Shown one piece after another: positions 5,700 to 46,425 of a stretch of DNA of 64,000 nucleotides. Origin of the DNA: Ascaphus truei. Taxonomy: Eukaryota; Chordata; Amphibia; Anura; Ascaphidae. Below the pieces are notes generated by a model. The model did not search any database, was not told the origin of the DNA, and saw only the letters and a list, made by a program, of their open reading frames with translations. Location: positions 12,616,071 through 12,680,070 of the forward strand of contig CM071579.1 of the NCBI GenBank assembly GCA_036426205.1. Direction: 5' to 3'. Both the position numbers and the translations under genes were made by a program. Within the stretch, counting starts at the first letter, position 1. Each line of letters opens with the position of its first letter.

Positions 5700-6163
5700 T
5701 AGGGAATCTGGGCCTAAGACTAACCAGTAGGAATGGAGAGAGAAGATCCGGTGCAACAGCAACAGCCAAAATGACGTCAGATCCGAAGTAGAACAAAAGT
5801 AACTTTATTGATGTAGACACACACTTGTAAAACAGCAGGCTGCAGCACAGCCTCCTCCTCTACGCGTTTCACGCTATACTAGCGCTTCATCTGAAGCAGT
5901 ACTGTGAAGGACACAGAAATCGGTAATCTTTGCCGTGCATTATTTCAATTTGACCTCCGTGGTCACACGAGCGTGCGCACCGTGCTACACAGTTCTGTAC
6001 AGTCTCATTATATTTCATTGGAATCAGTGGCTACATGGATTGGCGCCTAAGAACATTCCCAAGACTCCTCGTTAAAATTCCTAGTGCTTCCACAAGAAAG
6101 TGGAATTTCCATGGGTGGTGTCTGTTGCCTCATTTCGACAAATCTTAGATTTTTGGTCTTAAG
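5700..6163 (-). repeat. Hammerhead-bearing dispersed repeat
   Basis: A non-coding repeat that contains the motif at 5861-5893. Its right limit is set by the start of the solo LTR at 6164; the left limit is approximate. No reverse transcriptase or endonuclease is present. Confidence 0.5.
5861..5893 (-). ncRNA. Hammerhead-ribozyme-like motif, copy 1
   Basis: On the - strand: core CAGATGA (canonical CUGANGA with U4 changed to A), an extra A, stem II GCGCT/AGCGT with loop AGTAT, GAAA, palindromic ACGCGT, then A as the cleavage-site base. C3 and G8 are both canonical. The U4 change and the extra A predict poor or no activity. Helix I pairing is weak. Confidence 0.5.
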
Positions 6164-6418
6164 TGTGACGATACTCGTCTCCGATCAGGAAGCGGACCCG
6201 CAGGGCTGAGGTAGGGATGCCAATTAACCGACCAGAGCCCAGGGAGAGAGTATTGTTAGAGTATCCGGGGTCGGTAAGCAGGCAAAAGGTCAGGGCAGGC
6301 GGCAGTGGTGCAGAATCCAGGCGACAGACAAGAGTTCAGGGCAGGCGGGAGGCAGCGACGTTGGGGTCACAGTCCGGAGTCAGCAACAGGAATTCCAATT
6401 GAACAGGGAAGCCACAGC

Positions 6419-7090
6419 CACAGCCACAGCCACAGGAAAAAAAAAAAAGGAAGAATGGTGAAGCACTACAACAAATGTCCATAGAAAAATAAACAAACAG
6501 GAGAGTGCGTTTCCCATAAAAAATAATTATTTAATGGTCATGAGGACAAGAAAAGGGCAAAAAAGCCCCACCAACGTTTCACGCTTCTCAGAGCGCTTTG
6601 TCAAGCGTGAAACGTCGGTGGGGCATGTTTGCCCTTTTCTTGTCCTCATGACCATTAAATAATTATTTTTTATGGGAAACGCACTCTCCTGTTTGTTTAT
6701 TTTTCTATGGACATTTGTTGTAGTGCTTCACCATTCTTCCTTTTTCTCTTGTCATACCTACTGGACGGAGGCCACACCTAAGGACCCCCACTGCTGGATT
6801 GCATGGACGTTGCAGCTTCAAAAGTGAGTCACTTGCTTGCTACATGTTTTCCTGGTTATGATCTTTAATGAGATTTTGGTATTATCTAGGGTGAGTTATA
6901 TGCTTATCACTCCTGGTGTTAATGTGTGTCAATTTCTCACTATGTGATGAGTTCACTATCCAGGAGTCTACACCCAATACCTGTTGTCTTCAGTCAAGTA
7001 TTTATCCTGGGGATCCTTCTACAAGTATTCTTTATTCATTCAATTATATTTTCTGTTATCGGTCTTTAGCACCACGCATTTACATTCTAC
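6419..7090. mobile_element. Foldback element inserted in the solo LTR
   Basis: Bases 6440-6590 and 6605-6755 form a near-perfect hairpin (CATTAAATAATTATTTTTTA pairs with its complement), centred on a hammerhead-like motif. A one-sided segment follows (6756-7090). The decamer AAGCCACAGC occurs on both sides (6409-6418 and 7091-7100). It may be the target duplication, but the host is a tandem repeat containing the same decamer, so this is not proof. Confidence 0.65.
6573..6604 (-). ncRNA. Hammerhead-ribozyme-like motif, copy 2
   Basis: On the - strand: core TTGACAA (C3U and G8A, a compensatory pair), an extra A, stem II GCGCT/AGCGT, GAAA, palindromic ACGT, then T. It sits at the centre of a foldback. 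The + strand opposite also has GAAACGTC (6609-6616) but lacks a core. Confidence 0.5.
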
Positions 7091-7545
7091 AAGCCACAGC
7101 AACTGGCTAGCCTCTGGAACAGGGAAGCCACAGGGATAGGCAAGCCACAGCAACAGGCTGGCCTCTGGAACAGGGAGCACAGGGATAGGCAAGCCACAGC
7201 AACAGGCTGGCCTCTGGAACAGGGAAGCCACAGGGATAGGCAAGCCACAGCAACAGGCTAGCCTCTGGAACAGGGAGCACAGGGATAGGCAAGCCACAGC
7301 AACAGGCTGGCCCTCTGATGACCAGGGACGCCACAGGGATAGGCAGCCACAGCAACACTGGCCTCTGGAACAGGGAAGCCACAGGGATAGGCAAAGCACG
7401 CAACAGGCTGGCCTCTGGAACAGGGAGCACGGATAGGCACCACAGCAACAGCTGGCCTCTGGAACAGGGAAGCCACAGGGATAGGCAAGCCACAGCAACA
7501 GGCTGGCCTCTGGAACAGGGAAGTCACAGGGATAGGCAAGACACA
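7091..7545. repeat. Minisatellite inside the LTR, unit about 51 bp
   Basis: Eight to nine imperfect copies of a unit containing AGCCACAGCAACAGGCTGG, CCTCTGGAACAGGGA and CACAGGGATAGGCA. Units differ by small indels. ORFs read through on the - strand as PIPVASLFQRPACCCG-like repeats, but these are products of the repeat and not a protein gene. Confidence 0.92.
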
Positions 7546-7756
7546 CGGAAGACTCAGGAACTAGAGCCTTGGGTGTCAAGGAACACAATTAAAAGTATAC
7601 AATACTCAGGCAGGGGCTGGAAGTCACTGGCTTCTATTTAAGCCCTTGAACAGAGGCAGCCAATATAGCAGGCTGCCAGTAATCAAATTGTCCACAGCAG
7701 CCAGGTAAGGGCGGGTTCCAGCCAAAGCCTGGACTGGAACCCTTACATAAAGCTCC

Positions 7757-8425
7757 TGGGTATCGGTGGGCGTTGGTGTTTTGGTTTTTGTTGTACCAAT
7801 TTTTTGTCTTTTGGTTTTGCCAGAACTTTATTTTAAATATGTGCAAACGTTTCACTAAAGTTTGCAAACCGGGCAAAATGTGCCCTTTTTTCTTTTTCGA
7901 AAAGAATTAAAAGTCAATATAGATCAAAATGTATTTCCACATAACAGTTTGTGTATGTGTAATATATGATGGTGATGAAAACAATTTACCTTTCTGTAGT
8001 TGATTTGGAAATATAAATCATTTAAAAAATATATATGTGTAGGTCACCTAACATCAGGTCACATATAACTATTGTACTGCCATTTTTGCAATAATCTGGC
8101 AATAAGTGTGAAATGTGTGAACATTTCACAAAACTTTGAAATGTAAGAGAAATTAAAAAAAAAGTTTGCATATCTCAACTTGATTGTTTTTGGTTTGGGA
8201 TTAATTGTGGACAAACACAAAATAAGTAGGACATTTGTTTTGTAAATCCGAACTTTTATGCATGAGCTTGTGGGTTTTCTATTTGTGAGCGAAACAATTT
8301 CCCCAGTTGAGTCTTAGTATTTTGCGTAGATACGGAAATGCGTTCAGGAGTTTGCCTCTGACATCCGAACCAATGCTGAATTCTCAAAGTTTGGGTTTTT
8401 AACCCTTGAACCCGCCCATCCTTAC
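7757..8425. mobile_element. Possible hAT-like non-autonomous element
   Basis: The left end (GGTGGGCGTTGGTGTTTTGG) and the right end (reverse complement GATGGGCGGGTTCAAGG) resemble each other and the GTGGGCGAA termini of the hAT MITE at 1101. The interior is AT-rich and non-coding. No clean 8-bp duplication was found. Confidence 0.35.
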
Positions 8426-8996
8426 TCCTTGCAGCATCTCTGTGTAAAGCATATATGGAAAGATATTTATCGCGTCACAGGTTTAAAGAACATTACATTA
8501 TCAACCCGAGTACTGTGTCTTTGATTCCACACAAAGTTAGCTAATGAGTTCATGTTCTGCTTTCGACACCGTGCAAAACTTTTTCACCCCTTACATATTG
8601 TTTGTGCATCTCCCTCCCAGAGCTCCAGTAGCAATCAAGGGGTTAAGCATATCTTGACAAAGATAAATTACAAATCTCTCTTTCGCTGGCTGCAGTATGG
8701 TTCACAGACTTATGTCCATTATTTCTGGTGGCCATCCATACTGAGGACTCTTTTTCTAGCACACCGGCTACAGTGATTGTTTTCTGTGATAGATTTTCTA
8801 TAAACCCCCAGATAGTTTCCCCTTTCCAAATAAATGAGAAAGCTCGCTCTGCCATGAAGTATTACTGTACCCTAGAATTGGAGCAGTGACCAATAGTCCC
8901 CACTGCAAGCTCCATCCTCTGACAGGCTCGTTATTAGTTCTTAGTGACTTTGCAAACTTCAGACAAGCGGGTCTTCTTTCTTTTGTCTTCTTGTAG
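8426..8996 (+). other. NELL1: NELL1 intron, end of upstream intron with acceptor
   Basis: Unremarkable sequence ending in a strong pyrimidine tract (8971-8994, mostly T/C) and AG at 8995-8996, a good 3' splice site. No repeat family is recognised. Confidence 0.75.
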
Positions 8997-9119
8997 AACA
9001 TGATGAATGTAGCAGCGGACAGACCAACTGTGATGAGAATGCAATCTGCACTAACTCTGTCAGGGGACATAGCTGCACCTGCAAACCTGGATATGTGGGA
9101 AATGGGACCATCTGTCGGG
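8997..9119 (+). CDS. NELL1: NELL1 internal exon encoding one EGF-like domain
   Basis: This 123-bp exon encodes about 41 residues that start (E)HDECSSGQTNCDENAICTN and end CKPGYVGNGTICR. Six cysteines are in EGF order, and DEC at the start suggests a calcium-binding type. NELL1 is a secreted glycoprotein with an N-terminal thrombospondin-like domain, VWC domains and a row of EGF domains; it binds protein kinase C and acts in bone formation. The acceptor is TTCTTGTAG/AA and the donor is CGGG/GTAGGT. Both introns are phase 1, so the exon is symmetric and could be skipped without a frameshift. I choose NELL1 over NELL2 because, from memory, ENAICTN, GHSCTCKPGYVGNGTICR fit NELL1, whereas NELL2 has ENALCFN and CKPGYTGNGTTCK. 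A conserved open frame with intact splice sites argues for a functional exon. No other exon was found. Confidence 0.9.
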
Positions 9120-10754
9120 GTAGGTCTGTTACTCCAGCAACCTAATAAAACCATTTCTGTGAACTCTATTTAACACCTTGAAAGTCATCTTTGGTAGGTT
9201 CTGCGATGCAATCTATCATCTTACAAATGCACAATGGGCTGAGGTATTGATTAGTTATTGCATAGTTTTCAACTAAGATAAAAGTCGGGGTTCATTAAAC
9301 CTAGAAATAACTCTTGTTTTTCTAAGTGATTTTGTGCCATACATAAAGGTCTTGTTCACACAAGACTGGTTATCCAGCAAACATGCAGTGCATACATTTT
9401 AATGAGGTGGAACAGGCTTCCAGAAAAGACATTTACAGCACATGTAATTAATGTCACTAAGAGAGAATTTAGGGCTTAATTCATCATTTGTTTGGTCAAT
9501 GATGAATAGGAAGTGCAGACGGAAGATAAAAAATGAGCGTAATGTAGCTTTGTTTGATCTACTCATAAATGATACATAAAGTACATGCTACTGTATATCA
9601 ATGCCAGTTTTATTTAATGTTTTTTTATTTTTTTTTACAATATTTCTAAAGATGTTTAGATCTACATTTGGTACATCAGTGCCCTTTAATGATAATTCTA
9701 TGCTAACTAGCAAGATATTCAGTTATAAACTAGTATAATAATTCAAATAGCCAATGTAGTTAAATGACCTGGATGTTTAGGTAATTTGCAAATCTCAGTA
9801 TTTTTTGAATTTAAAATGAGATCCACCACTTCAAGCTTCAATGAATGGCTAAGATACACACAGTCAATCAGATACCAAAGGGATTCCAGACATGTGATGG
9901 CCTCCAAACTTTCAAATCTAAACTGAATGACCATGACATGTACAGTTTGCCAAGGCTGTTTGGCAGGATGTGGATACATCATAGATACAGGATTGTCTTA
10001 TATGAAATGGTAACATTACTTGCATTCATGTGCCTAGATGTATAGTTCAGCTATACTTATAGCGGCAGAGGATTTTAATGTTTCTCCCTCCCTTCTGTAG
10101 TTAGGCTGTTCCATTTTTGTTTAAATCATGGACTATTTTTACCCACTATTTTTGTGGTTTGAAATAATATTCCTGGTTATCGATTTTTAACCAGAAATAA
10201 CCTGTTCTGTGAATGCTGATCTTTAATTCCTAACACCAGGTCACACAGACTGCTTTATTCCTATGCCCAGAAGGGGATACACTTTACTGACATTTGCCAT
10301 AGAGGATTTCGAATCTGTTAGAAACGAAGAACAGGAGGAATTGAAACACAAACAAATAGAACATTGGTACTAGAAAAGAATGATCAGGGCACACAAATAG
10401 TGCCAGTAATAGGATCAATGGACATTGAGTTAAACATTTTGTCTACGGATTACATTTTGTTCCTGCTACTGCTTCTTCAAATAAAGTAGCAATACGGTAT
10501 ATTAAAACACTGAAGCAGATGCCTAGATTAGAGAATCCAAGTCATATTTAAAGAGATATATTGAATACCAAAATGGTACCTCGGTGAAATGTCGTCACAC
10601 ATTAATACATTTTCTCTATGAATACACGAGAAGGCAGATGTCGTCTGAAGGAGCAGTCCTTTTGAAGGGAAGGGTCTTTTTGATGTATTTTTGTGTGCTT
10701 GTGAGTTGGGTTTGGACAGATTTCTGTTTTTAGTAAGGGTTACATTGCATAACC
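9120..10754 (+). other. NELL1: NELL1 intron, nothing else recognised
   Basis: It starts with the donor GTAGGT. The remaining 1.6 kb is AT-rich with no repeat family or ORF that I can support. The next expected NELL1 exon (a short EGF domain) is not here. Confidence 0.6.
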
Positions 10755-13455: not shown

Positions 13456-13458
13456 GTT

Positions 13459-14972: not shown

Positions 14973-15884
14973 TTATAGGGCTTCATATTTAGATGGACAT
15001 GAAGGGGAAGGTGATACTGTGTGCTCATTTGCATGTCATTACCCAGAATCCCTAGCTGCAATGAAAGCATTGTATGCGAAGAGATAATGGGGGAAAGCAG
15101 GGTTGCAGACCTGTCTGAGACACGTGAATGTGCTCACAAGTGGTATTTTTTAGATTATATAATCAATTGTTATCAATTGTTCAGTAATTCTTGTGCACCT
15201 TGAATTTTCTAGTCTTAATCATTATTCATGTTCAGAAAGAGAAATCACTGCCACTCACCAAATGTGTGAAGGATATATACATATAGGGTGCATACGGGAA
15301 GATTAGAGACATAAAGGAGGAGGAAGGTTATAGATATAACCCAAAAGAATCCTATTTGCATTCACTATTAGCATTAAATGGCTAGGAAAAATTCAATCCT
15401 TGGGAACAACCCATTAGCCACTTACTAAACATGTTAAAATACTTTATTGAACATATATACAAAAAGAACCAAACTATCTAATATAAAAGAAACGGGGTAG
15501 GTACGAAGAGGTAAGTAGTCAATGTAGCTTATGTAATAGACAAGGTGTCTCTTCCTATCTATTTAGATGGAGGACAGCAAGTATATATAATGATGCACCA
15601 GTGGTCATATAAATACACAGTCATGTATAGTTACACATGAAAAACACACATGTCTATCTTTATGGTAAACAGATGGTAAGTACTGTGTATGTTCTCGAGA
15701 CTGCTTCGATATCCCTTTACTTTTAAAGTGTGTATATCTAATGCATATATATATATATATAGAAATATTCATTATAGTTTTAAAATACACCTATTGCGCT
15801 ATTAATATAGCTGTCCCTATGGAGTGGATACCGCGGTTGTTCGTCGCCTGTAAGTTCATGTGTCACAGCCTCGACAACACGTTA

Positions 15885-16304
15885 GGCCGAGTCCATAGAA
15901 GGACAGGCCGTGCTGAGGCGTGCGGACGCTCCGCGCTGAGCCCCTGCATCCTCAATGAGGATGCCTTGAGAGGGGGCTCACGCGAGCGTCCGCAGGCGTG
16001 CTGACGAGATGGAAGTTTCAGCCGAGCGCCAAGCTGTTTTTCAGCGCGCTGTCGGCTGAAAACCTCCAATCACAGAACAGCAGTGTCGACGTCACGGCGC
16101 CGTGACGTCGACGTCAGTGCGTCGACGTCAGTGCGTCGCGGGCGATTGGCCCAGCGACGTCACTGCCTTGCCTCCAACCACCTCCCCCCGGCTCCGATCG
16201 CGCCCGCTGGCTCGCCTGTATGGGCATGAAATCGGCCAGATTTCAGCAGGCGAGCCTCAGCGTCAGCGCGGTTCGGATCGCCTCACCCGTCTATGGCCCG
16301 GGCC
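15885..16304. mobile_element. Harbinger-type MITE nested in the palindrome arm
   Basis: Ends AGGCCGAGTCCATAG and CTATGGCCCGGGCCT are inverted repeats, flanked by TTA (15882-15884 and 16305-16307). The opposite palindrome arm preserves the unoccupied site (17324-17326 on the reverse strand). That shows the insertion is younger than the palindrome and confirms its borders. The body is GC-rich with internal palindromes built on GACGTC. Confidence 0.85.
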
Positions 16305-16498
16305 TTATACATTGCGGTATCTGAAATATGCTTAGCTTAGGCATCATATCAGCAGTCACATGTAAGAACAGAATACATCGCTATGACAGCGTTGTTCAGG
16401 AGATATACGACCTGGTGTCTTCAGTTCAGCAGAGCTTCCTCTCGCCGTTCCGTATCCGCACTCCCTGATGACGTCACGACTGTGACGTAATAAAAACC

Positions 16499-16532
16499 GA
16501 CGTACGTTTCGCATCACCTAGCGCTTTCTCAA
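16499..16532 (-). ncRNA. Hammerhead-ribozyme-like motif, copy 3 (left arm)
   Basis: On the - strand: core TTGAGAA (C3U/G8A pair), an extra A, a weak stem II (GCGC/ATGC), GAAA, then the perfect 8-nt palindrome ACGTACGT (16500-16507) and C as the cleavage base. The palindrome is intact here but mutated in the right-arm partner. Confidence 0.5.
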
Positions 16533-17095
16533 GGTAATGGGAGTGATGAGAAGACCACATCCCTGACATCTTATGTGGAATGGCCGGAGGTGTGTCTGCT
16601 CACGATGGCCAATCACAACAAAGATGAATGACGCAGACATGTTAATGTGGCTGCTGTATTTACATCTTAATCCGTATTACCACTGTGTGTGCTTACTATT
16701 GTCTGCATATTAATATTACATTGTTATGTTTTGTCCCTGTCGCTGTAGCAATTTAAAGGACTTAGATGAGTGTCACTGTGGCCTCATAATATTAACAGAA
16801 GTAGTATATCACTTAGTGTGATTAAAGATATTGCGAGGTGTTCAAAGTACAGATAAAACATATAAAATTAGGGGGAGATGTATGGGAATTGCTACAAAAC
16901 ATAACAATGTAATATTAATATGCAGACAATAGTAAGCACACACAGTGGTATTACGGATTAAGATGTAAATACAGCAGCCACATTAACATGTCTGCGTCAT
17001 TCATCTTTGTTGTGATTGGCCATCGTGAGTAGACACACCTCCGGCCATTCCACATAAGATGTCAGGGATGTGGTCTTCTCATCACTCCCATTACC

Positions 17096-17129
17096 TTGAG
17101 AAAGCGCTAGGTGGCGCGAAACGTATGTC
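17096..17129 (+). ncRNA. Hammerhead-ribozyme-like motif, copy 4 (right arm)
   Basis: On the + strand: core TTGAGAA, an extra A, stem II GCGC/GCGC with loop TAGGTG, GAAA, ACGTATGT, then C at 17129. Helix I can form between CATTACC just upstream and GGTTTTAATG just downstream (ACC/GGT plus CATT/AATG). It is the inverted partner of the 16499 motif. Confidence 0.5.
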
Positions 17130-18015
17130 GGTTTTAATGACGTCACAGTCGTGACGTCATCAGGGAGCGCAGGTACGGAACGGCGAGAGGAAGCTCTGCT
17201 GAACTACTGAAGACACCAGGTCGTATATCTCCTGAACAACGCTGTCACAGCGATGTGTTCTGTTCTTACATGTGACTGCTCATATGATTCCTAAGCTAAG
17301 CATATTGCAGATACCGCAATGTATAAGTGTTGTCGAGGCTGTGACACATGAACTTACAGGTGACGAACAACCGCGGTATCCCCTCCATAGGGACAGCTAT
17401 ATTAATAGCGCAATAGGTGTATTTTAAAACTGTAATGAATATGCCTATATATATATGCATTAGATATACACACTTTAAAAGTAAAGGGATATCGAAGCAG
17501 TCTCGAGAACATACACAGTACTTACCATCTGTTTACCATAAAGATAGACATGTGTGTTTTTCATGTGTAACTATACATGACTGTGTATTTATATGACCAC
17601 TGGTGCATCATTATATATACTTGCTGTCCTCCATCTAAATAGATAGGAAGAGACACCATGTCTATTACATAAGCTACATTGACTACTTACCTTTTCGTAC
17701 CTACCCCCTGTTTCTTTGATATTAGATAGTTTGGTTCTTTTTGTATATATGTTCAATAAAGTATTTTAACATGTTTAGTAAGTGGCTAATGGGTTGTTCC
17801 CAAGGATTGATTTTTTCCTAGCCATTTAATGCTAATAGTGAGTGCAAATAGGATTCTTTTGGGTTATATCTATAACCTTCCTCCTCCTTTATGTCATTAT
17901 TCATGTTGTAATAAAAATTGGCCAGCTTTAATCAGATATCTGCTACAGGATAGGTAAGCAGGTTGATGTTTGGGACATATCTGGACCATTGCCATAGCAG
18001 CATTGGTGTGGGTTA

Positions 18016-19839: not shown

Positions 19840-20440
19840 TTCCCAAAACTAGTACAGGAAATGGGTGGGTGTTCCCAGCACACACAAAAAAGAATAAATA
19901 AATGCCAAAATGATGATTCAATACTGAAATATGTCAAAATAAAGAATTTGTATTATAGCGAAACACTAGCATGCAGTATTTACAGTGAAGGGATGCTACA
20001 CAGATATATGCCTAATTGGCATGTGGGGGGGAGGGAGGGGAGTGGGAAAAAGGGGAAATACAGGAAACAAATATAAGGGTTGATGCCAATAAGGGCAAAA
20101 AAGGAGCTGATGTGGAATAAGGGGGGCAACGTTTCGGGGCGGGATGCCCCTTCGTCAGGCCCATTCCAATGGATCCTCAAAAGAGAAACGTGGTACTTCC
20201 CTGATCCCAATAGTAGAAAAAAAGGTACAATGTCCTTAATAGCAGTGCATCCAGAGTAAGGGACGGTTAGTGAAATGAGATTGGCAGGTTCCTGCAGGAA
20301 ATGCATATGAGAGCAGCACCTTAGTGAGAGTCACAATAAAGCTCCTATATGGGTGGAAAAATCAATGAAGGATCCTATTCAGTGTGTGAAAAGACCAGGG
20401 TCTGTACATGAAACAGCCCTGTCTGAACTACTACACTTGG
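19840..20440 (-). repeat. Hammerhead-bearing dispersed repeat with best-preserved core
   Basis: A non-coding repeat around the motif at 20128-20158. Contains purine-rich runs (20027-20060) and no ORF of interest. Boundaries are approximate. Confidence 0.5.
20128..20158 (-). ncRNA. Hammerhead-ribozyme-like motif, copy 5 (canonical core)
   Basis: On the - strand: core CTGACGA (exact CUGANGA), an extra A, stem II GGGGC/GCCCC (5 GC pairs) with loop ATCCC, GAAA, palindromic ACGT, then T. Helix I is well supported: GGGC (20159-20162) pairs with GCCC, and GGAAT (20163-20167) pairs with ATTCC from 20114-20118 after an internal loop. Helix III is too short to close within one molecule, so a dimer would be required, as known for newt satellite hammerheads. 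The extra A before stem II is non-canonical. Confidence 0.6.
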
Positions 20441-20574: not shown

Positions 20575-20970
20575 AGATCCGTGGAGGGATGCAACGGAGC
20601 ACAGCCAGGTCACAGCCAAATTAGAACAAAGTGGGGGCAGCAATCGTAGATCTGATTAAAATAGATTTATTGAACCAGTGAACACATGGTACAGAGCAGG
20701 TGCAGAAACACCACTCTAACGCGTTTCACGCTGCAATAGCACTTTGTTAAAGAGTGTATAGTGTAAACATGGACTGTCACTAGAACAAAGCAGAAGAGGT
20801 GAAAGGTGATTTTCATTCATTAATTTTTTTTACTTATAGTGGTGTTTCTGCACCTGCTCTGTACCATGTGTTCACTGGTTCAATAAATCTATTTTAATCG
20901 GATCTATAATTGCTGCCCCCACTGTGTTCTGATTTGGCTGTGACCTGGCTGTGCTCCCGTTGCGGCAGTG
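20575..20970. repeat. Foldback element carrying hammerhead-like motif
   Basis: Arms at about 20580-20735 and 20835-20968 are inverted repeats (AATAGATTTATTGAACCAGTG pairs with its complement), and the hammerhead-like motif lies at the inner edge of the left arm. No coding capacity. Confidence 0.8.
20718..20750 (-). ncRNA. Hammerhead-ribozyme-like motif, copy 6
   Basis: On the - strand: core TTAACAA (C3U/G8A pair plus G5A), an extra A, stem II GTGCT/AGCGT with loop ATTGC, GAAA, palindromic ACGCGT, then T. Helix I pairs CACTCT with AGAGTG (6 bp). The G5 change should inactivate it. Confidence 0.45.
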
Positions 20971-21045
20971 GATATTCACAGTTGAGTGCAAATAGCCGCA
21001 CGGCTATTCGCACTCAGTAGGAAATAAAATGGAAAAAAAATAAAC

Positions 21046-21115
21046 ATCCCAGCCAGGAATCGAACCCTGGTCCACTCTGTTAATGGCCTGGAGCATAACC
21101 ACTAAGCTATAAGAC
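21046..21115 (-). repeat. tRNA-like sequence, left arm
   Basis: On the - strand it has A box TAGCTTAGTGGTTA and B box GGTTCGATTCC with a perfect T-arm (CCAGG/CCTGG). The acceptor stem does not pair and the anticodon arm is degenerate, so it is a tRNA-derived repeat head, not a tRNA gene. Confidence 0.75.
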
Positions 21116-21282
21116 TTTCTGATGCTTTTGTAGTGAATAAAGGCATAGAAGCCTATTGACATTACAGTGTTCATAGCAGCTCGGCTATTCGCACTCAGTA
21201 GGAAATGAAATGGAAAAAAAAAGACAGAACACTCCCCTATTGACATTCTATACCCCCTGCATCTGTAATCAGCGCGGCTTTA

Positions 21283-21611
21283 GGTTGAGTCCCCAGTCAG
21301 CACTGTGGCACGCGCCCAGCGTGGGGGGGGGCGGCGCATGCACAGGGCTAGACCGCGATCTGCGGTCTGAGGGGAGAGAGAACGTTTGCGACGGGAGGGG
21401 GCGTGGCGGTAGGTTTGCGGGGGCGTGGCCATGACATCCCGCGGCGGGTTCGCCCTCATTGGCCTACCGCCACGCCCCCGCAAACCTACCGCCACGCCCC
21501 CTCCCATCGCAAAAGTTCTCTCTCCCCTCAGACCGCAGATCGCGGTCTAGCGCTGTGCTTGCGCCGCCCCCCCGCCGGGCGCGTGCCACAGTGCTGACTG
21601 GGGACTCAGCC
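21283..21611. mobile_element. GC-rich inner palindrome, possible Harbinger MITE
   Basis: Ends GGTTGAGTCCCCAGTCAGC and GCTGACTGGGGACTCAGCC are flanked by TTA and TAA, as for a Harbinger MITE. However, the inverted symmetry continues outward past these points, so it may be one larger foldback rather than an insertion at the exact centre of another. Confidence 0.45.
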
Positions 21612-21825
21612 TAAAGCCGCGCTGATTACAGATGCAAGGGGGTATAGAATGTCAATAGGGGAGTGTTCTGTCTTTTTTTTCCATTTCATTTCCTACTGAG
21701 TGCGAATAGCCGTGCGGCTATTTGCACTCAACTTAACTGAGTGCGAATAGCCGAGCTGCTATGAACACTGTAATGTCAATTGGCTTCTATGCCTTTATTC
21801 ACTACAAAAGCATCAGAAAGTCTTA

Positions 21826-21895
21826 TAGCTCAGTGGTTATGCGCCAGGCCATTAGCAGAGTGGACCAGGGTTCGATTCCTGGCTGGGATGTTTAT
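21826..21895 (+). repeat. tRNA-like sequence, right arm
   Basis: A box TAGCTCAGTGGTTA and B box GGTTCGATTCC are both intact, so an RNA polymerase III internal promoter is plausible. T-arm pairing is perfect, but acceptor and anticodon arms do not fold as in a tRNA. It mirrors 21046-21115. Confidence 0.75.
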
Positions 21896-21960
21896 TTTTT
21901 TCCCATTTTTTTCCCATTTTATTTCCATGGAAATATGGATTTTGGGTGTAACATCAGCGA

Positions 21961-22930
21961 AAATCCGGGAAACGGATTGAGGGTAATGTACAGAATTGCA
22001 TCTCCATTATTGTCCTATAAACGTCTAGTACAGTATATTACGAAGCTTAAACTGCTCCACCGTTTAACAATTTCCTTTGCCGTTGTAAAGTAGTTTTCAG
22101 GCCCTTGTGACTTTTGTAAAAAAAAAAAATCTGACATTCTGAATACTATTAAAGATGGTCATTTTAGCGCCTCTTATTGCTCTTCTGTGATATCTCCTAG
22201 CATCCAGATATCTTAAGGCGAGCTAATCAACGTGAACATCTGACACTATGCCATCATTCTGCTGTGGAGACAGCTCGTTTCATTTTTGTAGGTCCTGATG
22301 TTAGGATAAGCCACCATCCTAAGGCAAGATGGAACCAGGAAATCCATCTTCTGAAACCTGGACATATGAATAACCTAGGCAGCAGTTTAATCAGCAACGT
22401 GGCCATCTGAAATGAAAGTCTGTGTCATAAATAGTCACCTATGGTGCCATTTTAATCGGAAATGGGATATTAAACCAAAATGCAACGGCCTGTAACATTG
22501 CTATTGCAAATAAGAGAATTGTTTGAGGAGTGAGTTGCAAGGGTTTATTATGTGTTGGCTACATAATATAGAAAGACAAAGTTATAGACACTTTCGTGCT
22601 GTGGCTGTTTAATGTATTGCTGTGTGTAAAATATGGAGACATTTCGTGTGCCGCACAAGTGGATTCTGAAACGGTTCAATAGTTCATGTTAATTTCCGTC
22701 ACGGTGTAATACCCTCTCATTTAAATTCAGGATCTGTTTAATAGGCTTGAATAGGTTATAATAGTCACAAAGGCTGAACGGTGACACACTCATGTTTAAG
22801 TTGAAATAAAAGAAAGTATTAAATAATGTGGACAATGGGACTACCACAAATATTGACTTGATGCAATTTGAGATTTGTTTCCTAAATGTAAAAGCATTGG
22901 AGAATTTCACAATAATGTGTGTGGTCAGGA
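21961..22930. other. Intronic sequence, nothing recognised
   Basis: No repeat family or gene signal that I can support. Confidence 0.5.
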
Positions 22931-22932
22931 TT

Positions 22933-23540
22933 AGTATACTCCAGTAACGAGTGTGTTCAGGAAGATCAGTATGCTTCAGTACTGTGTATGGTCAGGAGGT
23001 GCATTATACTCCAGTAATGTGTTTCCAGGAGGATCAGTATACTCCAGTAATGTGTTTCCAGGAGGAGGAGTATACTCCAGTAATGTGTGTCCAGGAAGAT
23101 CAGTATGCTTCAGTACTGTACTGTGTATGGTCAGGAGGTGCATTATACTCCAGTAATGTGTGTCCAGGAGGATCAGTATACTCCAGTAATGTGTTTCCAG
23201 GAGGAGGAGTATACTCCAGTAATGTGTGTCCAGGAAGATCAGTATGCTTCAGTACTGTGTATGGTCAGGAGGAGCAGTATACTCCAATAATGTGTTTCCA
23301 AGAGGATCATTATATTCCAGTAATTTGTGTCCAGGAGGAGCAGTATACTCCAGTAATGTGTATAAACATGAGGATCAGTATACATCAGTACTCGGTATAA
23401 ACATGAGCATCAGTATACATCAGTGCTGCGTATGGTCAGGAAGATCAGTATACTCCAGTAATGTGTATGGTCAGGAATGTTGGTATACTTAAGTAATGTG
23501 TAAAACCAGGATCATGCATACATCAGTAACACGCATGATC
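22933..23540 (+). repeat. Minisatellite, unit 33-35 bp with higher-order structure
   Basis: Imperfect units of the type TATACTCCAGTAATGTGTTT plus CCAGGAGGATCAG. Every fourth unit or so is a variant with CTTCAGTACTGTGTATGGTC, recurring near 22973, 23108 and 23245, which gives a higher-order period of roughly 135 bp. Because most units are 33 bp, all three frames stay open and produce repetitive ORFs such as YSSNVFPGG. These are not evidence of a protein. Confidence 0.92.
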
Positions 23541-26019: not shown

Positions 26020-26417
26020 CACTTGCAGTTTTGTCTCTACCTCTGGCTCCCACACTTTCTCCACTAATCCCCCACCCTATTTAATTTCCCATTCTTTACT
26101 GTCATCTCCCTTATTCTGCAGCCACCAACTCCATCTGCTTCCCACATAACATCCACATACCAATCTTTTCACGTCCCACATCCTATCCCAATGTCTCCTT
26201 TTCATCCCGCACTGCCAGTCACCCTGACCTCATCCCCATTAAACCTCTCCCTCCCCTTTCCTGTTCCCATTGGAATGCACGATCTGTCTGCAATAAACTT
26301 GGCTATCCATGACTTGTTCATTTCCAATTCTCTCAACCCCCTAGTCTAGCCTGGCCCACCCCCTCAGATACCTCCTTCCCTGCTGCTCTCTCCTATGGTG
26401 ATCTTTCCCTTAGTCAC
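26020..26417 (+). mobile_element. L2 LINE, 5' part (endonuclease start)
   Basis: The + strand shows HWNARSVCNKL (about 26267-26300) and TPSDTSFPAALSYGD (26360-26405), typical of the start of the L2 apurinic-type endonuclease domain. It is cut at 26417 by the LTR retroelement, and the LINE resumes at 31496. Confidence 0.85.
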
Positions 26418-27522
26418 TGTCACGGTTGTGCTCGCCACAAACCTGGGTCGGACCGCGTGGCTGAGGTGGGGTTGTATAAGCACCGACCTTAGACCGCGCA
26501 GGCTGATCCGAATTGCGCAGTTCGTAGTCGTACGTAGCAGGGTCGGGGTTGGAGAAGGCAGCATCATCAGTGGACAAGCCATGGTCAGGACTGGAGAGAT
26601 CAGGGTAAACGTTATTCAAGCAGGAGTTCGGCAACAGGTAATCAGAAGTTCCCCGCCTCAGCTTAGGAGCGTGAGCGCGGGCATGGGTTCTGCGCGTGTA
26701 ATGACCACGGCCCATATTAATGGTCTCAGGAAAGGATAGGCAGACCAGAGTGGGCACGCCGCCAGGCAGCACTGGTAAACAAGTGCTTCAGCGCAGGACT
26801 CCAGAGCAGCCTGTGCAAGGAGAGAGAGAGCTACAGACCTCAGGACTCGTGATTGGCCTCTGCTAAGGGTAGGGCAGCAGACCACAGGAACAGGAAGCAG
26901 GAGGATACACGGGAGGTACTCCGCTTCAGCACAGGAACCAGGACACGGCCTCTGCTATGTAGAATTAGCAGCAGGCCCCAGGAACCCAACAGATAGGCTC
27001 TGCAGAGAAAGGACAGCAAGCCTCAGGAAACCAGGAGCTGAAGTCAGCACTGGAGTGACCTCCGCTTCAGCACAGGAACCAGGAACACGGCCTCGGCTAT
27101 GAAGAATGGGCAGCGGCCCCAGGTACCGGTAGATAGGCTCTTGCTGTGGAAGGATAGCAGGCCTCAGGAAACAGGGATCTGAAGTTAACATGAAGAGTAC
27201 TCCGCTTCAGCACAGGAAACAGGAACAGTACTCTGCATGAACTAGGGAATAGAACTAGAGAGATTAGTACACAACAGAGCCAAGCCTTAGGGCTTGTGGC
27301 AGAACACTTGTGACAACCAGGAAGGGTTATGCTCGGCAGGGAAGCATTGTGGGAAAGGTGTCTTTAAAGGTCAGTGAACCAATAGCAGAAGGGGCGTGTG
27401 GCAGCACTGCTTTAATGTGTGAACATAGGGTGGAGCTGCAGCAAAGGTCAGGAGCAGTATTCCAGGGCTGCATAAGTCTGTAAGGCAAGGCAAACCGCAA
27501 ACTAAGGTGCGGATCCGTTACA
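26418..27522 (-). repeat. 3' LTR, 1105 bp
   Basis: From TGTCACGG to CCGTTACA on the + strand. Its first 518 bp match 30992-31495 with only scattered substitutions and small indels (mostly 26555-26615), so the element is fairly young. It contains an imperfect tandem repeat of about 140 bp. Confidence 0.88.
26925..27225. repeat. Imperfect 140-bp tandem repeat inside the LTR
   Basis: Units begin ACTCCGCTTCAGCACAGGAA (near 26928, 27060 and 27198) and include GATAGGCTC and GGCCTCAGGAAAC. About two and a half copies are present. The truncated 5' LTR ends just inside the first unit. Confidence 0.8.
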
Positions 27523-30989: not shown

Positions 30990-30991
30990 AC

Positions 30992-31495
30992 TGTCACGGT
31001 TGTGCTCGCCACAAACCTGGGTCGGACCGCGTGGCTGAGGTGGGGTTGTATAAGCACCGACCTTAGACCGCGCAGGCTGATCTGGATTGCGCAGTTCGTA
31101 GTCGTACGTAGCAGGGTCGGGGTTGGAGAATGCAGATCACAGTGGACACGCCATGGTCATGACGGAGAGATCATGGTAACGTTATTCAAGCAGGAGTTCG
31201 GCAACAGGTAATCAGAAGTTCCCCGCCTCGGCTTAGGAGCGTGAGCGCGGGCATGGGTTCTGCGCGTGTGACGACCACGGCCCATAGTAGTGGTCTCAGG
31301 AAAGGATAGGCAGACCGGAGTGGGCACGCCGCCAGGCAGCACTGGTAAACCAGTGCTTCAGCGCAGGAGTCCAGAGCAGCCTGTGCAAGGAGAGAGAGAG
31401 CTACAGACCTCAGGACTCGTGATTGGCCTCTGCTAAGGGTAGGGCAGCAGGGAACAGGAACAGGAAGCAGGGGGATACACGGGAGGTACTCCGCT
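30992..31495 (-). repeat. 5' LTR, truncated
   Basis: Matches 26418-26935. The rest of the LTR is deleted and L2 sequence follows at 31496. The bases next to the LTR on the internal side (GTATGCTCGG on the - strand) do not contain the TGG expected of a tRNA primer-binding site. Confidence 0.85.
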
Positions 31496-40585: not shown

Positions 40586-40601
40586 ATTCTGATCTTCTTA
40601 A

Positions 40602-41104: not shown

Positions 41105-41645
41105 TCCATACATAGGACACCCTTTGTTTGAGTTTCCCTTCAACATGATGACTCTTGTGTCTTTTATGGTGAGATCCGTTTGGCAGAAGTGTTCTCCCAG
41201 TGGTGTATCCGTTTCTTTTCTTGTTGATAGGGAGGCAATGTATATTCATCCCTTTCCTCAAGATCTGTCTTGTTTCACCTACATGGTCTTTGCAGAAGAG
41301 GTAGTTCTATCAAAGATTGACATTTCGGTTCACAAATAGGGACCTTTCTCACCTGTCTAGGCTCCAAGTTGTTTGCTAGCACCCATGGCAGTTTACATTT
41401 GATAGCATGCGTGCTCCTGCTCTTTACTGTATATTGTTTCACCTATATAAAGTCCTGTGTTGGGGCATTTCATGATAAGATAGACAACAGATGAATTGCA
41501 GGAAAAGGAGTCCAGAACTTTGTACAGTAGGCTTGTGTTTGTGGTATTGATATCCTGTCTTTTATGCTGGCAGGTTAATGTGCCAAGGTCTACCAGAAGT
41601 AAGTGATTTATCCTAATTCTTACTGGAAAGACACACAAAGGGCAA
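41105..41645 (-). pseudogene. Penelope-like element remnant, GIY-YIG endonuclease region
   Basis: The - strand shows SSVVYLIMKCPNTGLYIGET (41440-41500) and then, in other frames, HVGETRQILRKGMNIH and TPLGEHFCQTDLTIKDTRV, the pattern of the C-terminal GIY-YIG domain of Penelope-like retroelements. The first YIGET is followed by unrelated residues and a second VGET appears later, so two broken copies may be joined. Several frameshifts are present and it is inactive. It lies next to the palindrome at 41985-42835, and PLEs are known to carry hammerhead motifs, which makes it relevant to the other findings. Confidence 0.75.
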
Positions 41646-41984
41646 TTAACTGGCTCTACGGCAGCTGGCAGAGCAGCAATGATAGTTTTGACCTAGTGAC
41701 TCATTTACAGAAATGTACAATTTAGCAATCCAGTGACTGCAAAACTTGTAGAAGCACAGATGTACTGTAGCCAGACTTGCTGTCCCCAGCACCATGCCCT
41801 AAAAAGCAAACAGCCAAGGTGCTAGGGACAGTGTCTGCCACGATTGTGCTACGGGGGGGTCTATGTTTCTGAATCGAACCCCCCTCAGCGTTAATCCATC
41901 CGGGACCGTGACCATCACGGTCGCCGGACTGTAAGAGAAACGGTAAGACTTGCTACATCTGTAGATAGGTGTATAAAATAAGTT
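41646..41984. other. Unassigned repeat-like sequence
   Basis: Contains a 7-G run and the inverted words GACCGTGACCATCACGGTC (41902-41920). No coding. Confidence 0.4.
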
Positions 41985-42835
41985 ACAATCACTCTGTAGG
42001 ATGCCAACTACACACAATGAATATCTATGCGCAGAACTCACAACAGGTACGGGGCAATAATAACCCAATTATATCCAGAAAGGCGAACAAAGTAAATAAT
42101 ACCTGTCCCCTGGTAAATCACTAGTGGAGGACTTGCTAAGAGAGCATATGCAAGGGGTTCATATCAAGGAATCCTGCGTTACTACACCCCTAATATTTCC
42201 TTCAGAGAACAAAAATACTGAACACAGGGGAGCAGTGGTATATTTAAAACCCAAATGAGAGGTTATAGGTGAATAATCACAATGGGGCCACCATTTTGGG
42301 GACATCCCTCCTTCTGACCCTTTCGCACACACAATAAATGGGGTACTTACCTCTCTCTCATTACCAACTACTTTATATAGTACAGGAAAAAACAAGGGTC
42401 ATTTTTTTTACAGTTATACAGTAGGTATCAGCTTCTTCATATAGCTCTGTGCCGAGTCCAGTGTAATCAGCTGCAGCACAATACAACCATTTGTAAAAAA
42501 TAACCCTTGTTGTTTTCTGTATTATAATACTAAAGGTAAATTCAAACCATTTATTTTAGGGGATTGAATCTAGCACTACTCCCTGTGTTCGGTATTTTGT
42601 TTTTCAAGGTAATATTAGGGGTTTAGTAGCACTGTATTTCTTGACATGCGCCCTGTGCATGCGCTCTCTTAGCAATTCCTCCACGCATGACTTACCAGTG
42701 GACAAGTATTATTTAGTTCATCCTTCTGGATAAAATTGGGTAATTATTGCACTAGACTTGTTGTGAGTTCTGTATAGTATATAGATATTGATTGTGTGTA
42801 GTTGTTGTTCTACAGCGAGATTGTAACTTGTTTTA
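41985..42835. repeat. About 850-bp palindrome (inverted repeat arms about 300 bp)
   Basis: The left arm (41985-42290) and right arm (about 42545-42835) are inverted and diverged copies. For example, AGTTACAATC pairs with GATTGTAACT, and CACCCCTAATATT pairs with AATATTAGGGGTTTAGTAG. It lies immediately upstream (on the - strand) of the PLE remnant. No hammerhead motif was found in it. Confidence 0.8.
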
Positions 42836-43192
42836 CACTCTTCTGTATTTCTAACGAGATCTAGCATTAGCAGCTACAATGTTATGTTTTTTTTCTTGTG
42901 TGCTTTTTTCCTAAAATATATTTTGGGGTCCTTTTTTCCGTGTGCACCGTGACATATTAACAATTATTTTTGAGTATAATCTTGTAGTGCTGTCTGACCT
43001 GCTGCACTTTAAATATTTTTAATCATCCTCATAAAAAGATTTGTCTCTTAAATGCTTCCCTACAGTACTTGAGGATTTTTAAATATTGAAGTCCGTGTTC
43101 AATCACATATAATCTTGCGCTACAAGGGTAATGCGAAGACAATCTCGAAGTGTCTGATTGTAGGAGCTGTATTTTAATCCTGTGTGATGATT
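42836..43192. other. Intronic sequence, nothing recognised
   Basis: AT-rich and featureless. Confidence 0.45.
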
Positions 43193-44608
43193 CTTTGCTA
43201 TTCAAGCAATTTAAAAAAATAAATTAACATGGGGTTGAAGCAGGGTGTCTTTGAAGCTGTACCCCATTCATTTCAGCTCCTGGGACCCCCTGCTTCCCGA
43301 GATACAAACCTCCAAAAGGGGGTGCTGGTATCTTGGCAAAGTTTAAAGCTCCCGCTGTCACGATGACACCAACTTTTATCAACACATTTATATTTCTGGG
43401 TACTTGATTGAACAGAACAAGTTGCAAAATAAATTGTGATTTAATTCCTTAATAGACAAACACACGACATCTGCAGAATACACTTAAAACAACACTCACT
43501 GGGATAAGAGAACGAAATAAATTGTCCTTGGAGCGAAAAAAATTGTCCTTTGCTAGCCAGTGCAAGAAATGCAGCCTTGGTTTTAAAAGTCCTGTGCTTA
43601 TTAACCCCTTCACTCCTGGACTGGTTGCTGCTGTACTGGAACAAAGTCTTGCATCTTTACATCATGGATTACAATTCAGTAATCACACTGGGAATAATTG
43701 GGAAGCCACATTTATAGACTGCCCAAAGCTATCTTTAACATGTGGATCCAATCCCCTCGTGGGAACAAAAAAACCCACGAATAGCCAAGTGACCCACAGT
43801 TCCTAAGACCGGTCCAAAGGGCTGTCCGGTGGGCAGGGCACATGGGTCAGGTTGACGCCCATGCCACTTAGCATACCTGGACTACACCCATTTCTTGGGG
43901 CCACTGTGTCTGGTCTCTGACTCCAAGGTGTCACTAGCCTGACATCTGCTGTGCATCAGTATGCCAGTATTGTATACATTATGGGCCTCTGGGTCTTGTC
44001 ATAATTGACACTCTTTTATACAGGGGGACTCTAAATCTGTGGGAGCCTTTTGAGGCTCCATCATAAAAATAATTACAACCCTTTGAGGCTTGGTCATAAA
44101 AATTCCAAAGCTCATTCACCCATATCACAGCTGGAGGTCCAAGTAATTCCTGCTAGGACTTACAAAAAAAATACATCCTGCCTTACATTTAAGATCTGCT
44201 ATCATGTGTTGGTTAGAGGGTATGGCAAGCAATGCATCTTGTCTTTTACCATCGCAGACAGGGAATGGCCTGCAAATGGGGAATAAAAATGGCGGGGATA
44301 GGGCAACAACAGTAATGCATGGCAAATCAGGTATTAACCCTTTCCTCCCCGTCACACCCGCATCATGTGGGCCAATTGGAAGTGGAACCTGAGGACATCA
44401 CGGCTTCCTATTGGCCCGCAGGGTGCGGGAGCTTTGAAACACCGCCATTATGTGATCCCTACTAGCCGAGCAGAGCGGCTACTGGCACCCATTTCGGAGG
44501 TAAGAATCTCTGGAAGCAGGGGGTGTCCCCAGAGCTGAAATTAATGGGCTTCAGCTACCGAGACTCCCTGCTTAATTTTTCTTTTAATCGCCCGCTTGGA
44601 TTGCCTCT
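43193..44608. mobile_element. piggyBac-like MITE interrupted by a solo LTR
   Basis: The left half (43193-43355: GGGGTTGAAGCAGGGTGTC, GGGGGTGCTGGTATCTTGGC) and right half (44357-44608: CATGTGGGCCAATTGGAAG, CGCCCGCTTGGATTGCC) together match the intact MITE at 40602-41023. The TTAA flanks have decayed. Confidence 0.78.
43356..44356 (-). mobile_element. Solo LTR, 1001 bp, perfect CCCGC duplication, nested in a MITE
   Basis: TGTCACGATGACACC...CCCCGTCACA flanked by CCCGC at 43351-43355 and 44357-44361. Removing the LTR and one CCCGC restores continuity with the intact MITE at 40602, which independently confirms both borders. The - orientation is inferred from the TGTGACGGGG start on that strand. 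Confidence 0.92.
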
Positions 44609-45184
44609 TTATAGAGATCAGTGTTAATCAAAAGGTTATAGAACATGTTACTGTGTTTGCTAGGCATATGGTATAATATATTTCAGTGCAGGTGCAGTAA
44701 GAGACATTTATAAAACCTTGAAAAGTCCACCGAGTACAACCCAATATTGGAGCATATAGTTCAGTGTCTAGCAGAACAGAGATACAAATATGATTTATTT
44801 TTCAGGTGTTGTCATTTCAGTGCTTGTATCAAATAAGTCTGTACATGTAGTCCTCCAATATTAAGCATCTTTTGTTCAAAGTTTGCTACTTCCTCTTAGG
44901 TCCTTGAGCAGGCAAAGTTGATACCAGCACAGTCGCACAAATGCGAGCACCCATTTATAATGCCATCAAGTTATTCCTCCGCTGATGACTCCTGTTGCTT
45001 ATCAGATGTTTTGTTGCCCGAGGCACAGGTAGATAATGTAATTTGTCCCAAGTCACAAGCAATTGGCAGTCTAGAGTAGGTTCCTAAACCTTTAGAGTCC
45101 CTAATGACATACTAATTATAGCATGGTTCCTGAACCCAAGGGACCCTTGTGACATACCAGGTACATCATGGGCACTTGCTCATT
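44609..45184. other. Intronic sequence, nothing recognised
   Basis: No feature that I can support. Confidence 0.45.
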
Positions 45185-45192
45185 ATCTAGGG

Positions 45193-45375
45193 CAGGGGTG
45201 CTCAACTTCAGCTTCAGCACAGGTGGCTCAATCAGAGGCTCAGCCAAAGACTGAGCCTCTGATTGCACCACCTGTGCTGAAGCAGGGACTGATTGAGCCA
45301 CCTGTGCTGTAGCAGGGATATCCTTAAAACCTGACCTGTTGGAGGAGGCTTGAGGACTGGAGTTGAACACCCCTG
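45193..45375. mobile_element. hAT-type MITE, 'CAGGGGTG' family, 8-bp TSD
   Basis: CAGGGGTGCTCAACTTCAG...CTGGAGTTGAACACCCCTG, flanked by ATCTAGGG (45185-45192) and ATCTAGAG (45376-45383), 7 of 8 identical. An internal duplication of GGCTCAATCAGAGGCTCAG and its inverse makes a small hairpin. Confidence 0.9.
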
Positions 45376-45383
45376 ATCTAGAG

Positions 45384-46239
45384 ACAGATCGGGCTGACCA
45401 CTCTGACCGAGTGGCCAACCCAATCCAAAACAGAAGTAGAGCTCCCACCATTTCTATTACTGGCATCTGGCCACCAGTCGTGACATGTGATCGCTCCAGG
45501 AGTGGTCACATGGCATCACCTCGGCACTATAAAAGGTTAATGGTCAGGGCCTTATAGTCACAAGGCCACTTCAGCCACTTTAATGCGTGTTCTGCGCTGC
45601 TGAATTAGTCACTGCAGATTATATTATTAGTTCTCATCCATCAGTAACCACTTACATGTAGGATCATGTTTTCCAAAGAAGGTCAGTAGGTGGCTCCCTA
45701 AACTCCACCTCTCTTCCTGTGCATATTTTAGCAGGAGAATTATCCAAAAGTTTCTCCCCTGCCTGAGCCTTGACAGTTCCTCATTATTAATTAATATCTG
45801 TCAGCCGGTCTGCTGTCAGACCACAAAATATGTCGCCATGCATGTATTCCACCTAATCAGTTTGTGTCTCATCTCGCGTCCCTACTGCGTGCGCTTAGAA
45901 ATAGGACTTTTCAAAGTTATAATACGAATGCTAATTGAAATCCTACATTCTGTAATTGCTTTTTAAATCAACAAAGACAGCAATGAAACAATCTTTGATT
46001 AATTGATCATCAAACGCTAGAACTAATCCTGGTTGTTTTAAGAATGTATAAATCTTGTTAACGGTTGTTATTTTACAGCTAATGGTATCCGGAAGAGATA
46101 TAAAAAATTTCAGGAAACTCTTTAAAGATCTCAGCAATTCTACGTTCCCTTTTACTTGCTGTTTATTTTTTACATTAAAAGAGCAATGTTAATTGAATAT
46201 TATTCGTTGGTAATATTCCAAATGGCGGTGGTGCGCCAA
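45384..46239. other. Intronic sequence, nothing recognised
   Basis: No feature that I can support. Confidence 0.45.
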
Positions 46240-46425
46240 TATTTGGTATTATATTAGGTTTCCTAAGGAATATAGTTCTCTAGTTGGTGCTACCCTGAGG
46301 AAGCTCACAGAACTGAGTGAAACGCGTTGGGTGGGATTTCCTCGTGCCTATAGCCTCCCCTCCAATCCTGCAAGCAGAAGCCGAAACCAGAGCCTCCCTG
46401 ATCCTCTCTGACAAGACTTTATCTG
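46240..46425 (+). repeat. Hammerhead-bearing repeat fragment
   Basis: A non-coding segment around the motif at 46295-46328. It gives way on the right to the LTR fragment at 46430. The limits are approximate. Confidence 0.45.
46295..46328 (+). ncRNA. Hammerhead-ribozyme-like motif, copy 7 (canonical core)
   Basis: On the + strand: core CTGAGGA (46295-46301, exact CUGANGA), an extra A, stem II GCTCA/TGAGT with loop CAGAAC, GAAA (46319-46322), palindromic ACGCGT, then T at 46328. Helix I can form between CTACC just before the core and GGGTGG just after, with a one-base bulge. It is the only + strand copy with a C3-G8 core. Confidence 0.58.

What the first reader, a model, noticed from the sequence alone, without database searches (positions are those of the whole stretch)
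5861..46328. Seven dispersed hammerhead-ribozyme-like motifs, all with palindromic helix III
At 5861-5893(-), 6573-6604(-), 16499-16532(-), 17096-17129(+), 20128-20158(-), 20718-20750(-) and 46295-46328(+) the order is the same: a 7-nt CUGANGA-like core, a short GC stem-loop, GAAA, then a self-complementary block (ACGT, ACGCGT, or ACGTACGT/ACGTATGT) and a non-G base. The surrounding sequences differ, so these are separate repeat families or strongly diverged copies sharing this module. Established knowledge: hammerheads occur in Penelope-like elements and retrozymes, and newt satellite hammerheads with very short helix III cleave as dimers. A palindromic helix III suits a dimer. Caveat seen in all seven: one extra A lies between A9 and stem II, which is non-canonical and could abolish cleavage or mark a different structured element.
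Basis: partly seen in the sequence, partly recalled or inferred. Interest (0 to 1): 0.92.

Follow-up and report, generated by a model that had tools for sequence, protein, structure and literature searches.

The report
Hammerhead-like RNAs with an extra adenosine
Seven copies of one short RNA-folding pattern are scattered through this 64-kb stretch of DNA; they are most likely worn copies of a tiny self-cutting RNA (a hammerhead ribozyme) that was probably spread by mobile elements and is predicted to work in pairs, and the extra base that seemed to disqualify them is also reported in a working plant-viroid hammerhead.

Summary
All seven motifs are where stated, all carry one extra A after A9, and six of seven helix III blocks are strict palindromes (m4 needs G-U pairs). 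A descriptor of the module, written after seeing it, finds 7 in the window; 1000 dinucleotide shuffles gave 0 in 958 and 1 in 42. Without the extra A the window has none.

Hammerhead ancestry is well supported: stems I and II tend to covary, and core positions 3 and 8, which pair in hammerheads, are C-G in three motifs and U-A in four. The extra A is not disqualifying: the chrysanthemum chlorotic mottle viroid (+) hammerhead has the same A10 and cleaves (PMC3705267).

Corrections: at most six independent loci (m3/m4 are arms of one palindrome); m1 (U4A), m6 (G5A) and m2 (no stem I) look inactivated; paired folding was predicted only for m7; no Penelope or retrozyme hallmark was found.

A lead: an inverted copy beside m6 begins within 2 nt of the predicted cut. 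Cleavage and genome-wide abundance remain untested; the window's genome did not complete.

The parts
5861..5893 (-). m1: core CAGATGA (U4A) + extra A, stem II of 5+ bp, helix III ACGCGT, H17 A; stem I 3 bp. Predicted cut 5861|5860; expected inactive
6573..6604 (-). m2: core TTGACAA (U3-A8) + extra A, helix III ACGT; stem I only 1 bp because the 5' side is an inverted copy of the 3' side. Expected inactive
16499..16532 (-). m3: core TTGAGAA (U3-A8) + extra A, stem II 3 bp then a mismatch, helix III ACGTACGT, H17 C, stem I 3 bp
17096..17129 (+). m4: mirror copy of m3 with a full stem II; helix III ACGTATGT self-complementary only with G-U pairs
20128..20158 (-). m5: exact core CTGACGA + extra A, stem II GGGGC/GCCCC, helix III ACGT, H17 T, stem I 4 bp
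20718..20750 (-). m6: core TTAACAA (U3-A8, G5A) + extra A, helix III ACGCGT, stem I 6 bp. Predicted cut 20718|20717; expected inactive now
46295..46328 (+). m7: exact core CTGAGGA + extra A, stem II 5 bp, helix III ACGCGT; stem I 2 bp in the canonical register, 5-6 bp if shifted to take in C3
5357..5382 (-). m8: truncated relative, keeps only AGCGAAACGCGTTGGG (8.1 bits)
50899..50943 (+). m9: possible decayed copy (14.9 bits; decoys reach 20.3), AATAAA at 50950-50955
6436..6753 (.). 318-bp palindrome centred in stem II of m2 (arms 159 nt, 94%)
15301..17902 (.). 2.6-kb interrupted palindrome holding m3 and m4 (arm blocks 96-98% alike)
20596..20719 (-). tail of m6, present again as an inverted copy at 20834-20957 (95%); the match begins 2 nt before the predicted cut
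20834..20957 (+). inverted copy of the m6 tail, without the ribozyme core
5804..5809 (-). AATAAA 51 nt after m1
20666..20671 (-). AATAAA 46 nt after m6

Best explanation
The seven motifs are most likely copies, several of them decayed, of a minimal type I hammerhead ribozyme that has one extra A between A9 and stem II and was probably spread by a retroelement. In the working form two motifs in one tandem transcript, or in two transcripts, would pair through the palindromic helix III, complete two hammerhead cores and cut after H17, releasing RNA whose 5' end is the 3' strand of stem I. Shown: the shared module, its enrichment, the pairing stems and the C3-G8/U3-A8 alternation. Inferred: common descent, spread by a retroelement of a Penelope-like kind, dimer action, and cleavage. 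The copies here are largely fossils: m1, m2 and m6 should not cut; m3, m4, m5 and m7 might.
For: Seven against at most one in 1000 shuffles. Positions 3 and 8 pair in 7 of 7 by C-G or U-A, a covariation reported in natural hammerheads whose activity had been shown in vitro (PMC3088659 section 8). Stem II pairs in 24 of 24 cells at six loci (permutation p 0.033), stem I in 21 of 30 (p 0.065; p 0.033 without m2). m7 is found at 26.0 bits by a model built without it. Decoys with the same conserved letters have a stem II of 4 bp or more in 1 of 108 and 1 of 15 cases. A10 is tolerated in a viroid hammerhead, while C or G there is severely harmful (PMC3705267), and the extra base here is always A. 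The minimum-energy dimer of m7 is a double hammerhead with a shifted stem I. m1 and m6 have AATAAA 51 and 46 nt downstream.
Against: No Rfam hammerhead match even at E 10. m5 left out of the model scores 10.9 bits, level with the best false hit. Two-strand folding does not favour helix III except in m7 (0.99) and partly m3 (0.37). Single-strand folding energy is unremarkable for m1, m3 and m4 (z -0.33, -0.71, +0.36). m7's stem I prefers a register that uses C3. Three cores are damaged. No reverse transcriptase, GIY-YIG domain, direct terminal repeat or tandem unit was found near the motifs. Cleavage was not tested.
Confidence: 0.65

Rival explanations
1. The module descends from a hammerhead but no longer needs to cut; it is kept as a folded recognition or translation signal of a retroelement, for instance bound by its protein.
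For: Core damage in m1 and m6 while stems persist. The Anolis Penelope hammerhead did not cut without protein, its mutants still allowed insertion, and no RNA-seq ends were seen at its cut site (PMC11167929 passages).
Against: The bases that matter only for catalysis (3-8 pair, GAA, U16.1, non-G17) persist in 7 of 7, and m5 and m7 have exact cores. PMC11167929 also cites self-cleavage of Penelope hammerheads at 3-25 mM Mg2+.
Confidence: 0.15
2. A DNA-level feature: the hairpins and palindromes are parts of foldback or MITE-like transposons or protein-binding sites, and the resemblance to a ribozyme is secondary.
For: m2, m3/m4 and m6 lie in or beside inverted repeats; the palindrome of m2 is centred inside the motif.
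Against: m1, m5 and m7 have no inverted repeat of 18 nt or more in the regions searched. The module keeps strand-specific unpaired bases that DNA hairpins do not need.
Confidence: 0.12
3. Chance matches to a short, loosely defined motif.
For: Hammerhead cores are short, and the descriptor was written after seeing the motifs.
Against: 7 against a maximum of 1 in 1000 shuffles; m7 found by a model built without it.
Confidence: 0.01

Closest known systems
Minimal type I hammerheads of Penelope-like elements and dispersed in animal genomes (Cervera and de la Pena 2014; Lunse, Weinberg and Breaker 2017; originals not held, seen through PMC7761336, PMC6155905, PMC6466107 and PMC7229834 passages)
   Same: Type I layout, very short helix III, dimer action, dispersed copies in non-coding DNA.
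   Different: A fixed extra A after A9, and U3-A8 in four of seven. Whether the originals describe the extra A is unknown to me. No Penelope gene near the motifs was found.
Plus hammerhead of chrysanthemum chlorotic mottle viroid
   Same: An additional A10 between A9 and stem II, with cleavage retained (PMC3705267 passages).
   Different: A viroid ribozyme. Helix III and the dimer question were not compared.
Newt and axolotl satellite or retrozyme hammerheads
   Same: Type I, weak helix III capped by a palindromic tetraloop, need dimers (PMC7229834 passages).
   Different: Those lie in 330-350 bp tandem units and keep loop 1-loop 2 contacts; no tandem array overlaps the present motifs.
Natural hammerheads with U3-A8 (Perreault et al. 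2011)
   Same: C3-G8 replaced together by U3-A8 (PMC3088659 section 8 read), as in m2, m3, m4 and m6.
   Different: That section names insertions after A6 and in the GAAA stretch, and none after A9.

Membership tests
Hammerhead ribozyme | Core C3 U4 G5 A6 N7 G8 A9 followed by G12 A13 A14 | tested here: inconclusive
   Exact in m5 and m7; U3-A8 only in m2, m3, m4; U4A in m1; U3-A8 with G5A in m6; GAA in 7 of 7
Hammerhead ribozyme | Positions 3 and 8 able to pair | tested here: met
   C-G in 3, U-A in 4 of 7
Hammerhead ribozyme | Stem II directly after A9 | tested here: not met
   One extra A in 7 of 7; precedent in a viroid
Hammerhead ribozyme | Three stems | tested here: inconclusive
   Stem II in 7 of 7 (3 bp in m3); stem I of 3 or more consecutive bp in 5 of 7 (m2 1, m7 2 in the canonical register); helix III only between two copies
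Hammerhead ribozyme | A15.1-U16.1 and H17 not G | tested here: met
   7 of 7
Hammerhead ribozyme | Match to an Rfam hammerhead model | tested here: not met
   0 matches at gathering cutoffs and none of 19 at E up to 10
Hammerhead ribozyme | Self-cleavage after H17 | not testable with these tools
   Bench assay needed
Penelope-like element | Reverse transcriptase and GIY-YIG domains | tested here: inconclusive
   10 ORFs given to Pfam (8 of the 35 listed near the motifs, 2 elsewhere), 0 families; frameshifted remnants would be missed
Penelope-like element | Tandem copies or pseudo-LTRs carrying the hammerhead | tested here: not met
   No long direct repeat carries two motifs in the four regions searched; m3/m4 are inverted
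Metazoan retrozyme | 170-400 bp tandem units with a hammerhead in each | tested here: not met
   46 tandem-repeat rows, none overlapping the seven motifs

The most novel reading that the evidence does not exclude
These are an animal lineage of hammerheads with a fixed extra A10, and they did cut inside cells: the inverted copy beside m6 begins at the predicted cut because an element's enzyme reverse-transcribed ribozyme-cut RNA to its very end and joined it head to head with a longer copy. Junctions of this kind would be a fossil record of ribozyme cleavage during retrotransposition.
Probability: 0.18. Interest if true: 0.75.

Novelty: new variant of a known kind. Interest (0 to 1): 0.5.

Why it matters
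The role of minimal hammerheads in retroelements is called unknown in PMC7761336, and for the Anolis Penelope hammerhead no RNA-seq ends were seen at the cut site and cleavage was not needed for insertion in vitro (PMC11167929). If copy junctions in genomes fall at predicted cut sites, in vivo cleavage becomes testable from sequence alone. A family with a fixed A10 would extend to what looks like animal DNA a core change that I found documented only for one viroid, and Rfam release 15 models do not report it here.

Tried and rejected
Canonical hammerheads without the extra A: none in the window. The first, looser scan listed 11 extra-A rows with up to 3 mismatches: the seven motifs and four others (6663+, 6509-, 19369-, 8815-) without a palindrome after GAAAC; it also listed 17 rows in the canonical register. 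Rfam matches at E up to 10 were 19, all microRNA, snoRNA or sRNA families; the strongest, MIR8562 at 6470-6719, is below its cutoff and probably reflects the long hairpin.

Relatives outside the window: IMG/VR gave 108 matches to the conserved letters (80 listed, 108 read), of which 1 has a stem II of 4 bp or more and 6 of 3 or more, no excess over shifted registers. A form with one fixed stem gave 0, a GC-rich stem form 1 without the stem. GTDB genomes gave 15, one with 4 bp and one with 3 bp. A search with an ORF beside m7 gave nothing. These are viral and prokaryotic collections, so they serve as decoys. Only 80 of the 108 IMG/VR loci went to the model search, best 20.3 bits in 689,027 bases. 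No metagenome or animal collection was scanned.

Target-site duplications at the three palindromes: 5-6 nt matches or none. A text search for the letters GAAACGCGT gave 78 papers; the 30 listed showed none on ribozymes by title. Searches for an extra A in retroelement hammerheads found nothing on the point; one search returned 0 papers. Monomer free energy for m4 and the m4 double hammerhead could not be evaluated because the assumed loop was too short.
Full report
What is there. Read 5'-3' on the stated strand, each motif is: stem I 5' strand, an eight-base block close to CTGANGAA, a stem-loop, GAA, a self-complementary ACG...GT block, one base that is not G, and the stem I 3' strand. The extra A is the eighth base of the block, present in 7 of 7. 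Two cores are exact (m5, m7). m2, m3 and m4 differ only by U3 with A8. m1 has U4A; m6 has G5A as well as U3-A8. m2 has one base pair of stem I. U4 and G5 are nearly invariant in hammerheads (recalled), so m1 and m6 are expected to be dead.

More than chance. The descriptor, written after seeing the motifs, finds exactly these seven; 1000 dinucleotide shuffles gave 0 in 958 and 1 in 42. Without the extra A the window has 0 and the shuffles average 0.12. With looser limits the excess remains, 8 (one unrelated) against a mean of 0.49 and a maximum of 3 in 100 shuffles. Sequences with the same conserved letters but another origin seldom have stem II: 4 bp or more in 1 of 108 and 1 of 15. A covariance model of all seven scores them 33.3-44.8 bits, which is by construction; the best decoy has 20.3 (80 of 108 loci). 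In the fairer test m7, left out, still scores 26.0 bits, against 11.3 for the best unrelated site; m5, left out, scores 10.9, level with the best false hit. Only these two were left out in turn. So sequence ties m7 firmly to the rest, and m5 mainly by architecture.

Is it a hammerhead? The most telling point was not in the finding. In the hammerhead core positions 3 and 8 pair, and here they are C-G in m1, m5, m7 and U-A in m2, m3, m4, m6. Perreault et al. report this covariation in several natural hammerheads and say that such ribozymes had already been proven active in vitro (PMC3088659, section 8 read). With six loci (m3 dropped as a copy of m4) permutation gives p 0.05 for this pair, 0.033 for stem II and 0.065 for stem I; without m2 as well, 0.10, 0.05 and 0.033. 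Each is modest, and the U-A copies may share one ancestor. Rfam models do not report the motifs.

The extra A. The review PMC3705267 (passages) says that the plus hammerhead of chrysanthemum chlorotic mottle viroid has an additional A10 between A9 and G10.1; that it lowers the trans-cleaving rate moderately; that U there raises it 3-4 fold; and that C or G is severely harmful. The original (De la Pena and Flores 2001) is not held. The motifs here have A in every case. The finding's caveat therefore does not exclude cleavage.

Dimer or monomer. A fully self-complementary helix III without a loop cannot close on itself, so two motifs would be needed. Passages in PMC7761336, PMC6466107 and PMC7229834 describe this for minimal or amphibian type I hammerheads. 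Free folding of two strands agrees for m7, whose minimum-energy dimer has both stem II hairpins, helix III between strands and stem I between strands, shifted to include C3. For the others it does not: helix III probability is 0.37 in m3 and at most 0.06 in m1, m2, m4, m5 and m6. Single-strand energies are below shuffles for m2, m5 and m6 (z -2.71, -2.22, -2.11), weakly for m7 (-1.65), and not for m1, m3, m4 (-0.33, -0.71, +0.36); for m2 this reflects the palindrome. Such energy models lack tertiary terms, but the result counts against.

Carriers. Three of the six loci lie in or beside inverted repeats: m2 at the centre of a 318-bp palindrome, m3/m4 in the arms of a 2.6-kb one, m6 beside a 124-nt inverted copy of its own tail. 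m1, m5 and m7 have none of 18 nt or more in the regions searched. The tails of m1 and m6 align weakly and have AATAAA 51 and 46 nt after the motif; m9, a possible decayed copy, has it 14 nt on; m4 and m8 at 625 and 331, m2 at 763, and m3, m5, m7 not within 900 nt. AATAAA occurs about once per 920 nt per strand. This suggests the 3' region of a transcribed element (inference). Ten ORFs gave no Pfam family, no long direct repeat carries two motifs and no tandem array overlaps them, so I file it under neither Penelope-like elements nor retrozymes.

A junction at the cut site. The inverted tail copy beside m6 matches from 20719, two bases before the predicted cut (20718|20717), over 130 columns with 6 mismatches and 1 gap. 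The fourth base of the match is a mismatch, so if the first three are chance the copy starts two bases after the cut: the junction lies within 2 nt of it either way. If breakpoints were spread evenly over 400 nt this would happen by chance in about 1%, or 4% given three palindromes (my estimate). The Anolis Penelope protein cleaves and extends both target strands (PMC11167929 passage), which could give head-to-head copies; one made from cut RNA would stop here. Against it: one case, m6's core is now damaged, the m2 palindrome breaks elsewhere in its motif, and that same paper found no RNA-seq ends at its cut site.

Limits. The window's genome appears to be held but 18 genome search and 2 genome-fetch requests did not complete. 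Lunse et al. 2017 and Cervera and de la Pena 2014 are not held, so 'new variant' is provisional. Verdict: real, hammerhead-derived, largely fossil, a variant of minimal type I hammerheads known from animals.

Noticed in passing
6580-6622(+): The opposite strand of the m2 palindrome scores 19.0 bits with the model: stem II, GAAACGTC and tail are mirrored but the core is not.
   Followed up: partly
6436-6753: A 318-bp near-perfect palindrome whose arms are nearly identical except for the central 45 or so bases and the outermost end; Rfam MIR8562 scores 117 bits there, below its cutoff of 211.
   Followed up: partly
26416-26907 and 30990-31477: Direct repeats 96-98% alike and about 4.57 kb apart, a candidate LTR pair; two long ORFs between them gave no Pfam family.
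   Followed up: partly
20980-21915: Several nested inverted repeats (arms 61-180 nt, 94-98%), next to the m6 palindrome.
   Followed up: no
59507-60402: Inverted repeat with arms of 147 and 65 nt, 89% alike.
   Followed up: no
742-970: Inverted repeat, arms 81 nt, 99% complementary, 67 nt apart.
   Followed up: no
7090-7550 and 22927-23502: Minisatellite arrays of about 51-nt and 33-nt units.
   Followed up: no
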